A stretch of DNA of 64,000 nt from Candidatus Planktophila dulcis (GTDB lineage: Bacteria > Actinomycetota > Actinomycetes > Nanopelagicales > Nanopelagicaceae). Shown piece by piece: positions 23,939 through 48,833 of this stretch. A model generated the notes under the pieces. The model ran no database searches, had not been told where the DNA came from, and saw only the letters and a program-made list of their open reading frames with translations. Within the stretch, counting starts at the first letter, position 1. Every line of letters starts with the position of its first letter. The position numbers were made by a program, and so were the translations under genes. Location: positions 868,001 through 932,000 of the forward strand of contig NZ_CP016777.1 of the NCBI RefSeq assembly GCF_002288225.1, given 5' to 3'.

Positions 23939-24850
23939 TTACGCCCTTGGGTGAGCCTGTTTAAAAGCTTTCTGAAGTCTCTCCGTCGACACATGGGTAT
24001 AGATCTGGGTTGTGGCAAGGGATGCATGGCCCAGAATTTCTTGGACGGTTCGAAGGTCTGCGCCGCCTTCAAGAAGATGTGTTGCAGCTGAATGTCGCAG
24101 AGCATGTGGTCCCATTCGCTCAACTCCCTCTAACGCAGAGAGTGCTTCATAGACAACGGTGCGCACTGTGCGCTGATTAATGCGACCACCACGTGAACCT
24201 AAGAAAACTGCGCGAGCAGACTTATCTGTTGCAACAGATGGACGAGCATTCTTAAGCCAATCATTGAGAGCTTTGATTGCAGGGCCTCCCAAAGGAATTG
24301 TGCGCTCCTTATTTCCCTTACCCAATACCCGAATTGTGTTGCGGTTGTAATCAACATCATCAAGGTCTAGGCCACAGAGTTCTGAGACGCGGGCACCGGA
24401 TGCATAGAGCACTTCAACGATTGCGCAATCACGCTTTGACAGTGGTGTCTCCTCCTCAGCAACACGAGTAGCAAGTGAATCCATTGCAGTGGATGCATCT
24501 ACAACAGATAAGACTTCAGGCAGGGTTCTATGTCCTTTCGGTGTTGCAAGGGTTGCCCCTACATCCTTATTTAGATATCCCTTTTTCGTTGCCCACTTGG
24601 TAAAGAGGCGAATAGATACCGCCCTACGTGAGAGCGTTGTGCGCGCTCCCCCTTTAACCTGCTGATTAGCTAGCCAAGAACGTATATGTGCAATGGTGAT
24701 CGATGCGACATCATCAACTTTCTGCTTTTCTAGATGCTGAAGGAAACTTTCAAGATCTCCAAGGTATGCCCTGATGGTGTGCTCAGAGAGGTTGCGTTCC
24801 TTCTCGAGGTAGCGGGTGTACTCCACCTGCACGCTCTCGAAGGATGACAT
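23939..24850 (-). CDS. xerC: Tyrosine recombinase XerC
   Basis: Resolves chromosome dimers at dif together with XerD. The start MSSFESVQVEYTRYL is preferred: the in-frame extension upstream runs through the palindrome and has no ribosome-binding site. The 303-aa protein has the SAM-like N-terminal core-binding domain (1-95) and the catalytic domain with R154, K178, H249, R252, H275 and nucleophile Y284. Its place beside rpsB matches the usual actinobacterial xerC rather than a phage integrase. TATATT lies 8 nt before the ATG, suggesting a leaderless mRNA. Confidence 0.92.
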   Translation of the reverse strand: MSSFESVQVEYTRYLEKERNLSEHTIRAYLGDLESFLQHLEKQKVDDVASITIAHIRSWLANQQVKGGARTTLSRRAVSIRLFTKWATKKGYLNKDVGATLATPKGHRTLPEVLSVVDASTAMDSLATRVAEEETPLSKRDCAIVEVLYASGARVSELCGLDLDDVDYNRNTIRVLGKGNKERTIPLGGPAIKALNDWLKNARPSVATDKSARAVFLGSRGGRINQRTVRTVVYEALSALEGVERMGPHALRHSAATHLLEGGADLRTVQEILGHASLATTQIYTHVSTERLQKAFKQAHPRA

Positions 24851-24858
24851 GTATAAAG

Positions 24859-24893: not shown

Positions 24894-24913
24894 TTGATGC
24901 GTATACGCATCAA
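24894..24913. repeat. Perfect 20-bp palindrome between divergent xerC and an unknown gene
   Basis: TTGATGCGTATACGCATCAA is fully self-complementary with no spacer; symmetry ends exactly at its edges. It lies 18 nt before the start of the plus-strand 81-aa gene and 43 nt before xerC. Its length and position fit an operator for a dimeric regulator acting on the divergent pair. The partner protein is unknown. Confidence 0.7.
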
Positions 24914-24931
24914 AGGCGATACGGTGAAGGC

Positions 24932-25177
24932 ATGCGCATTCGAGTCTCGGATTCCATCGCGATTCCCTCACTGAGCCGAGAACTCGATGGCTCAGTGATT
25001 CTCTCCATCAATACAGAACTCTCCTTTGAAGACATCGAAGGTTTTGTTGGTGATCAGTTCGAACCAGGTGAGCGCGATATCGCCTTTGCACTCTGGGCAG
25101 ATGATGAGAGTAAGAGAGTCTTTACGCCCATCCCAGGAACTACAGATTTCTATATCGATCTGCGCCCACAGGATTAG
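24932..25177 (+). CDS. Unknown 81-aa protein, divergent from xerC
   Basis: I do not recognise a family. The 81-aa sequence is acidic (about a quarter Asp plus Glu), has no signal peptide or membrane segment, and alternates short hydrophobic stretches (SVILSINTEL, DIAFALWAD, TDFYIDL) consistent with a small alpha/beta fold. Codon choice is like its neighbours, which supports real coding. GGTGAAGG lies just before the ATG. It is divergent from xerC across the 20-bp palindrome and convergent with the XRE regulator gene, only 7 nt away. Confidence 0.6.
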   Translation: MRIRVSDSIAIPSLSRELDGSVILSINTELSFEDIEGFVGDQFEPGERDIAFALWADDESKRVFTPIPGTTDFYIDLRPQD

Positions 25178-25184
25178 TAGCTAC

Positions 25185-25439
25185 TTACTTTTTATCGAGA
25201 GCACCCAGCGCTATCAATAGCGTCTCGGGTGAAACTTCTAATACTTCACACAGTGGTGCAATGGCGCCAGTAGTTGGACGTCGCTCTTGTCTGAAATAAC
25301 GCGAAATAGTTCCGCGATCAATTCCCACCAATTCAGCTAGCTCTTCATAGGTTGAAATGTCGAGCTTAAGCATTCTCTGAGCAAGCCACTCTGAAGATTC
25401 GGCTGGGGTATTTCGTCTACCCGCGGAATTCGCGCGCAT
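25185..25439 (-). CDS. Small XRE-family helix-turn-helix regulator
   Basis: An 84-aa protein that is essentially one Cro/CI-type HTH domain. Residues 30-75 read YEELAELVGIDRGTISRYFRQERRPTTGAIAPLCEVLEVSPETL, with the turn at VGIDRGTIS and the recognition helix following. There is no sensor or dimerisation domain beyond it. It has a strong promoter and a leaderless start, separate from cimA upstream. It could control itself, the facing 81-aa gene or xerC; the target is unknown. Confidence 0.8.
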   Translation of the reverse strand: MRANSAGRRNTPAESSEWLAQRMLKLDISTYEELAELVGIDRGTISRYFRQERRPTTGAIAPLCEVLEVSPETLLIALGALDKK

Positions 25440-33945: not shown

Positions 33946-33969
33946 AAAAAACCCTCAGATATCTGAGGG
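33946..33969 (-). terminator. Intrinsic attenuator terminator upstream of ilvB
   Basis: CCCTCAGAT and ATCTGAGGG form a perfect 9-bp palindrome at 33952-33969, followed on the minus strand by six T residues (33951-33946). It lies between the leader peptide and ilvB, 48 nt before the ilvB start, so it would abort transcription unless disrupted. No spacer separates the arms, so the real loop must open a few central pairs. Confidence 0.85.
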
Positions 33970-47672: not shown

Positions 47673-48833
47673 TTAGCTGCGATGACTTGCGTGAACATTC
47701 TGCAAGAGGCCAAAGCCGATGAGGTTGGCAAACATGCTCGATCCACCGTATGACATAAATGGCAGAGGAACCCCTGTCATCGGCATCAACCCCAAGGTCA
47801 TTCCGATATTTTCAAATATTTGAAAAGCGAACCATGCAATAACACCGGTGCAGACAAGCATCCCGTAGGGGTCCGTCGATCGCCGCGCAATTGCAAATGC
47901 TCGCATCAAAATAAGAAAGAGGAGGAAGATGATGAGCCCACTACCTAAGAATCCAAGTTCTTCACCTGCAACGGTAAAGATAAAGTCAGTCTGCTGTTCA
48001 GGAACAAAGCGACCATTGGTCTGGGGACCATTAAAGAGACCTGTTCCAATGAGCCCACCAGAGCCCACAGTGATGCGCGCCTGCCTGAGTTGATAGCCAG
48101 CACCTTGTGAATCTGCATTGGGATCGACAAATGATTGAAGTCGCTTTACCTGGTAATCACTAATCACTCCGGCCTTGACTGCAACAAATCCACCGACGAG
48201 GGCTAGAAGAATCAATCCAACAACCCAGCGTGTGGGAGCACCCGATACTGCAAGCATGGTGACAACGGATGCGCTAATGATTAGGACTGTTCCCATATCA
48301 GGTTGAGCAAGGATGAGAAGAATGGGAATAGCTGCAACACCGAGAGCCTTTAATACATCTTGATGCGAAGGTGCATCATTGTTGTGTGTGCGCTCAGATA
48401 AGAGCATTGCAATGCCGATGATGATAGAAATCTTTGCGATCTCCGCTGGTTGAATCTGCAAACCTGCTGGCAAACGAATCCATGCCTTTGCGCCATTTAC
48501 TTCACTACCCACTCCTGGAATGAGAACAAAGAGAAGTCCGAAGACACCTAGCCCCCAGATATATGGCGTGTATGCACGTAGTAGTCGGTAATCGATAATT
48601 GTCGTTCCCCACGCAAGTGCAAGACCGATGACAATATTGATGACATGGCGCTTGAGGTAATATTGGGGATCTAAGCCATTTGATGCATACCAATCACGAG
48701 TTGCTGCATAGACAAGCAACGTTCCAATAACTAAAAGCGCAGCGACTGCGCCCGTTAATACCGGATCAAAGCCAGAGAGAACTGAGCTTCTGCGCGCTCG
48801 ACGATAAGGGCTGCGATTGAGGAATGTACTCAT
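47673..48833 (-). CDS. rodA: Peptidoglycan polymerase RodA (SEDS family)
   Basis: SEDS glycosyltransferase of the elongation machinery. The 386-aa membrane protein has about ten helices, a large extracytoplasmic loop (QSFVDPNADSQGAGYQLRQARITVGSGGLIGTG) and the C-terminal GMTLGLMPMTGVPLPFMSYGGSSM signature. Start overlaps the PBP2 gene by 4 nt, matching the cognate SEDS-bPBP pair. Its position after mreBCD favours RodA over FtsW. Confidence 0.95.
   Translation of the reverse strand: MSTFLNRSPYRRARRSSVLSGFDPVLTGAVAALLVIGTLLVYAATRDWYASNGLDPQYYLKRHVINIVIGLALAWGTTIIDYRLLRAYTPYIWGLGVFGLLFVLIPGVGSEVNGAKAWIRLPAGLQIQPAEIAKISIIIGIAMLLSERTHNNDAPSHQDVLKALGVAAIPILLILAQPDMGTVLIISASVVTMLAVSGAPTRWVVGLILLALVGGFVAVKAGVISDYQVKRLQSFVDPNADSQGAGYQLRQARITVGSGGLIGTGLFNGPQTNGRFVPEQQTDFIFTVAGEELGFLGSGLIIFLLFLILMRAFAIARRSTDPYGMLVCTGVIAWFAFQIFENIGMTLGLMPMTGVPLPFMSYGGSSMFANLIGFGLLQNVHASHRS

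What the first reader, a model, noticed from the sequence alone, without database searches (positions are those of the whole stretch)
24894..24913. Perfect 20-bp palindrome between divergent xerC and an unknown small gene
TTGATGCGTATACGCATCAA is exactly self-complementary. A chance perfect 20-mer palindrome in a given short spacer is very unlikely. It sits 18 nt before the plus-strand gene and upstream of the xerC -10, the right place for an operator controlling both. A small XRE regulator lies 270 bp away.
Basis: seen in the sequence. Interest (0 to 1): 0.6.

Follow-up and report, generated by a model that had tools for sequence, protein, structure and literature searches.

The report
Conserved repressor-type DNA site near xerC
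The 20-letter mirror-image DNA sequence is a real, evolutionarily conserved docking site, most likely for a small repressor protein encoded next to it that switches a tiny unknown gene; identical copies also sit, unusually, inside and at the ends of metabolic genes, and their role there is not explained.

Summary
The palindrome is real (24894-24913) and not chance. The genome is a 1.35-Mb freshwater actinobacterium of the acI/Planktophila type. The site belongs to a small module (site, 81-aa gene, convergent 84-aa XRE gene) lying between xerC and a citramalate-synthase-type gene. Both genes occur in 14 of 135 genomes of the genus, and all 14 keep the site; most relatives without the module have xerC directly behind the citramalate-synthase-type gene. 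The 18-bp core ends exactly 19 nt before the 81-aa start codon in every genome measured, just upstream of a conserved TAnnnT -10 box: the position of a repressor operator for the 81-aa gene. Relative to xerC it lies further upstream, so control of xerC is less likely. XRE is the likely binder, but binding is not shown. The same 18-mer recurs at three other conserved places: across the stop codons of a convergent gene pair (1, 2 or 5 copies, 29 bp apart when repeated), inside that pair's dehydrogenase gene, and inside a glycerate kinase gene. In-gene copies are identical between species whose flanks have diverged. These off-promoter sites are the unusual part; roadblock, titration or a tiny mobile repeat remain possible.

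The parts
24894..24913 (.). perfect 20-bp palindrome; 18-bp core TGATGCG-N4-CGCATCA at 24895-24912, proposed operator
   Evidence: kept in all 14 module-bearing genomes
24920..24925 (+). TACGGT, TAnnnT-type -10 box of the 81-aa gene, 6 nt before ATG (proposed leaderless promoter)
   Evidence: TACGGT or TACCGT at -12..-7 in the 9 genomes measured; alignment of 12; TANNNT -10 motif of M. tuberculosis in PMC3898074
24932..25177 (+). 81-aa gene of unknown family (stop included)
   Evidence: orthologues in 14 of 296 genomes of the order, all in one genus; no Pfam, NCBIfam or PADLOC match; no fold match at E<=0.001
25185..25439 (-). 84-aa XRE / HTH_3 regulator gene, convergent with the 81-aa gene; proposed binder of the palindrome
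   Evidence: PF01381 E=1e-09; present in the same 14 genomes
23939..24851 (-). xerC-type tyrosine recombinase gene, divergent
   Evidence: PF00589/PF02899; TIGR02224 328.5 bits
24857..24862 (-). TATTCT, proposed -10 box of xerC, 6 nt before ATG 24851; invariant in relatives

Best explanation
The palindrome is the operator of a small regulatory module consisting of the site, the 81-aa gene and the convergent XRE gene. A dimer of the 84-aa XRE protein (inferred) binds TGATGCG-N4-CGCATCA, which lies at about -38 to -19 of the 81-aa gene, immediately upstream of its -10 box, and blocks RNA polymerase there (inferred from position). The 81-aa protein may feed back on XRE, as proposed for the small partners of WhiJ-type XRE proteins (analogy only). 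xerC has its own conserved -10 box and is probably little affected. The same protein would also occupy the few identical sites at the ends of, or inside, metabolic genes, where it cannot act as an ordinary promoter operator.
For: All 14 of 135 genus genomes that carry XRE keep the site next to the 81-aa gene: eight as the full 7-4-7 dyad, G138 with one change, five as CGATGCG(G/C)ATAAGCAACA. The exact dyad is absent from 120 of the 121 genomes without XRE; the exception, G019, is a 56% complete assembly (Fisher p about 1e-8, confounded by descent). In nine spacers measured the 18-mer ends exactly 19 nt before the 81-aa start codon, against 44 or 45 nt from the xerC start. 13 of 18 motif columns are invariant against 9 of 50 other spacer columns. 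In G074 the centre changes (AATG for GATA) while both half-sites are kept. In 13 of 18 xerC loci read from relatives without the module, xerC directly follows the citramalate-synthase-type gene, so the site goes with the module. The best PDB sequence hits of XRE are P22 c2 repressor (E about 0.05, weak).
Against: No binding or expression data. Co-occurrence follows few lineages, so it is not independent evidence (tree). The XRE gene's own promoter has no site, unlike many autoregulated XRE repressors. Most copies of the motif in this genome lie at gene ends or inside genes, which a simple promoter operator does not explain. G019 and G025 have sites near or in the dehydrogenase gene without XRE in their (56% and 71% complete) assemblies.
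Confidence: 0.6

Rival explanations
1. The site is an operator, but it is bound by another regulator of this lineage, and XRE is only a neighbour.
For: No motif at the XRE promoter. Most copies lie elsewhere in the genome. Conservation of the site does not name its binder.
Against: XRE and the site share the same distribution in 135 genomes apart from one incomplete assembly; XRE is the only HTH gene of the module.
Confidence: 0.2
2. The palindrome is a copy of a very small mobile or REP-like palindromic repeat that spreads in this clade and happened to land in the spacer.
For: The same 18-mer is found at the ends of convergent genes, inside genes and in a 5-copy array with 29-bp period. REPs are known at such places (PMC3733652). 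In the dehydrogenase most distant relatives lack about 6 residues where four genomes have DADTHQ or DADMHQ.
Against: Only 3 to 4 convincing loci per genome, at the same places in different species, not scattered. The spacer copy is kept in all 14 module genomes, in degenerate form in five. The glycerate kinase copy replaces residues without a length change. No GTAG/CGTC tag. RAYT was not searched for.
Confidence: 0.12
3. One operator controls both xerC and the 81-aa gene.
For: The site lies between the two divergent starts, and its distance to xerC varies by only 1 nt in nine genomes.
Against: It lies at about -43 to -62 of the proposed xerC start, upstream of the usual -35. Relatives without the module have xerC directly behind the upstream gene and no site.
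Confidence: 0.2
4. The element works as RNA: a hairpin (7-bp stem, 4-nt loop) ending or protecting transcripts, most obviously at the convergent gene ends.
For: Folds at -8.4 to -9.9 kcal/mol. In G089, G110 and G025 a single copy carries the stop codons of both convergent genes.
Against: No T run follows it. If the 81-aa promoter is leaderless, the spacer copy is not transcribed with that gene. Also conserved inside coding regions, where a hairpin has no evident use.
Confidence: 0.08

Closest known systems
Lambdoid phage repressor operators (P22 c2, 434, 933W)
   Same: Symmetric operator of two half-sites about a centre that is read weakly or indirectly (PMC3317979); small HTH repressor; promoter position. 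P22 c2 is the best, though weak, PDB sequence hit.
   Different: XRE here is only 84 aa, without the C-terminal domain of phage repressors; no phage genes nearby; one site per promoter, not a three-site switch. That P22 c2 operators share the 7-4-7 layout is from memory.
XRE-DUF397 pairs of actinobacteria (WhiJ/SCO4542, Scr1/Scr2)
   Same: XRE regulator next to a small protein gene in actinobacteria; the small partner is thought to modulate XRE binding to its operator (PMC6262351).
   Different: The 81-aa protein does not match DUF397 or any Pfam family even at E<=10; the two genes are convergent here.
Mycobacteriophage stoperators (L5-type repressors)
   Same: One repressor with operators at promoters and further sites thought to halt elongation (PMC9283540).
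   Different: L5 sites are asymmetric 13-mers, more than twenty per phage genome, oriented with transcription and bound by a monomer; here symmetric 18-mers at 3 to 4 loci of a bacterial chromosome, some intragenic.
REP elements
   Same: 20-40-bp palindromes often placed between convergent genes, some inside genes (PMC3733652).
   Different: Copy number far lower, positions shared between species, no GTAG/CGTC tag.

Membership tests
XRE repressor operator (lambdoid type) | dyad-symmetric site of about 14-20 bp | tested here: met
   perfect 20-bp dyad; 7-4-7 core in eight genomes' spacers, less symmetric in six
XRE repressor operator (lambdoid type) | position overlapping the core promoter of the controlled gene | tested here: met
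   -38 to -19 of the 81-aa gene, fixed distance in relatives, -10 box TACGGT; the start site itself is inferred, not mapped
XRE repressor operator (lambdoid type) | bound by the XRE protein | not testable with these tools
   needs EMSA, DAP-seq or a reporter assay
XRE repressor operator (lambdoid type) | repressor gene autoregulated through the same site (common, not universal) | tested here: not met
   no copy within 3 mismatches elsewhere in the window, so none at the XRE promoter
XRE-DUF397 pair | small partner with a DUF397 domain | tested here: not met
   no Pfam match to the 81-aa protein at E<=10
REP element | high copy number, GTAG or CGTC tag | tested here: not met
   3 to 4 convincing loci per genome, no tag
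REP element | associated RAYT transposase | not tested
Stoperator system | asymmetric sites oriented with transcription, many per genome | tested here: not met
   sites are symmetric and few
Intrinsic terminator | G+C-rich hairpin followed by a T run | tested here: not met
   hairpin possible but no T run; not listed by the terminator scan

The most novel reading that the evidence does not exclude
A streamlined free-living bacterium uses a small XRE repressor with one promoter operator plus a few conserved identical sites inside and at the ends of metabolic genes, acting as elongation roadblocks or as titration sites (five tandem copies in this genome): a host-encoded, symmetric counterpart of phage stoperators, with coding sequence shaped by a DNA-binding site.
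Probability: 0.2. Interest if true: 0.65.

Novelty: new variant of a known kind. Interest (0 to 1): 0.4.

Why it matters
acI actinobacteria are the most abundant bacteria in most freshwater lakes, have very small genomes and are hard to cultivate; an operator with a candidate regulator and a defined, short list of target sites is a testable circuit. If the sites inside and at the ends of genes are truly bound, they would show a use of repressor sites outside promoters in a bacterial chromosome, and protein-coding sequence shaped by a DNA-binding site.

Tried and rejected
Chance palindrome: rejected. dif/Xer recombination site: considered because of xerC, rejected on layout from general knowledge (a 7-4-7 core of 18 bp is not two 11-bp arms around 6 bp) and because the exact motif is missing in xerC-bearing relatives without the module. 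Sites at G000:1112148 (quinone-oxidoreductase-like gene, YADTHQ) and G000:1335912 (CCA-adding-enzyme-like gene, DAHPHQ) look like coding coincidences and were left out. Evenly spaced chromosome-organising sites (matS/parS-like) were considered; after removing those two, only three loci remain and no pattern is visible; the origin was not mapped. Phage origin: three viral hits of the motif, in unrelated surroundings. Hits of the motif in unrelated bacteria are near the number expected by chance (the expectation, about 15, is my estimate). Fold search of the 81-aa model (mean pLDDT 83) gave nothing. A sigma70-consensus promoter scan found none.

Full report
OBSERVATION. The sequence at 24894-24913 is TTGATGCGTATACGCATCAA, exactly self-complementary, the longest perfect palindrome in the window. 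A Markov simulation expects 0.067 such 20-mers per 64 kb, about 6e-5 in an 80-bp spacer. There is no other copy within three mismatches in the window. The window is bases 868001-932000 of a single-contig genome of 1,348,019 bases. Records with the same site include Actinobacteria bacterium IMCC25003 and SCGC AAA278-O22; IMCC25003 is an acI-lineage isolate (PMC5301498), so this is an acI/Planktophila-type freshwater actinobacterium.

THE MODULE. To the right lies an 81-aa gene (24932-25177, +) without any Pfam, NCBIfam or PADLOC match, then, convergent, an 84-aa XRE gene (25185-25439, -; HTH_3 E=1e-09). To the left lies xerC (start 24851, -). XRE is found in 14 of 135 genomes of the genus and the 81-aa gene in 14 of 296 genomes of the order, the same 14. 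In 13 of 18 xerC loci read from relatives without the module, xerC begins a few bases after the stop of the citramalate-synthase-type gene; in three more that gene lies upstream but the xerC start was not resolved, and G013 and G021 have other surroundings. The module therefore separates two genes that are otherwise neighbours. In a xerC tree the module needs two changes of state, so it was gained or lost at least twice, or the tree is wrong there (G074 is a long branch).

THE SITE IN RELATIVES. All 14 genomes keep a site in the spacer: TGATGCG-N4-CGCATCA in G000, G018, G022, G063, G071, G074, G089 and G110; TGATGCGCATACGCAACA in G138; CGATGCG(G/C)ATAAGCAACA in G078, G113, G133, G159 and G160. 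In nine spacers measured the 18-mer ends 19 nt before the 81-aa start codon in every case, and lies 44 or 45 nt from the xerC start codon; 13 of 18 motif columns are invariant, against 9 of 50 other spacer columns. G074 keeps both half-sites around a different centre. This is what a protein-binding site looks like. The exact dyad is absent from 120 of 121 genus genomes without XRE; the exception is G019 (56% complete), whose copy is in the dehydrogenase gene. The association is strong (Fisher p about 1e-8) but not independent of descent.

PROMOTERS. A TAnnnT box (TACGGT or TACCGT) lies at -12 to -7 of the 81-aa start in the nine genomes; AGAATA (TATTCT on the other strand) lies 6 nt from the xerC start in all aligned genomes. 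TANNNT is the -10 motif mapped 7-12 bp upstream of starts in M. tuberculosis, where about a quarter of genes with a primary start are leaderless (PMC3898074). By analogy both genes here are probably leaderless; starts are not mapped. The palindrome would then cover -38 to -19 of the 81-aa promoter, a repressor position, and about -43 to -62 of the xerC promoter. A sigma70-consensus scan found no promoter in the region, which says little, since no -35 consensus was found in M. tuberculosis either.

OTHER SITES. The 18-mer class TGATGCGKATMCGCATCA is expected about 8e-5 times in a genome of this size, but it recurs. (a) Between a short-chain dehydrogenase gene and a convergent small membrane-protein gene: one copy in G089, G110, G025 (one change) and G071 (two changes), carrying the stop codons of both genes; two copies 29 bp apart in G018 and, in variant form, in G074; five copies with a 29-bp period in G000. 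(b) Inside that dehydrogenase gene in G018, G019 and G063, and with one change in G071/IMCC25003; most distant relatives lack about six residues there. (c) Near the 3' end of a glycerate kinase gene in G018 and G063, one change in G000 and G089. In the exact in-gene copies the site is 18/18 identical between species whose 60-bp flanks are 57-78% identical; each comparison alone has a probability of about 0.001 to 0.01 under the flank identity, ignoring constraint on the protein. The kinase copy replaces residues without a length change; the dehydrogenase copy may be an insertion. Sites in a quinone-oxidoreductase-like and a CCA-adding-enzyme-like gene look like coding coincidences.

MECHANISM. 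Shown: the site, its conservation, its fixed position, its co-occurrence with XRE and the 81-aa gene, the further sites. Inferred: an XRE dimer binds it; binding represses the 81-aa gene; the 81-aa protein may modulate XRE, as thought for the WhiJ partner (PMC6262351). Not explained: what the sites at gene ends and inside genes do. Roadblock of elongation (compare phage stoperators, PMC9283540), titration of XRE by the five-copy array, and a small mobile repeat are all possible. The first is the most novel.

VERDICT. It most likely belongs to the 81-aa/XRE module and not primarily to xerC. The operator itself is of a known kind; the conserved copies outside promoters make it a variant worth testing.

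Noticed in passing
G000:C1:199023-199156 (L026:3024-3161): Five-copy tandem array, period 29 bp, of the same palindrome between convergent dehydrogenase and membrane-protein genes, against one copy in the close relative G110: probably a recent expansion.
   Followed up: partly
window 33952-33969: CCCTCAGATATCTGAGGG, perfect 18-bp palindrome preceded by AAAAAA in a stretch without ORFs of 80 aa; looks like an intrinsic terminator for the minus strand.
   Followed up: no
window 24224-24239: ATCTGTTGCAACAGAT, perfect 16-bp palindrome inside xerC; 14 bp of it are kept in G022 (L006).
   Followed up: no
window 48361-48378: TGATGCGAAGGTGCATCA, a half-match to the motif inside an FtsW/RodA-like gene, at chance level.
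   Followed up: no
L155 and L156 (G022 and G071 xerC spacers): Nearly identical spacers although the dehydrogenase loci of the two genomes differ (sites absent or present), hinting at recombination between species at xerC.
   Followed up: no
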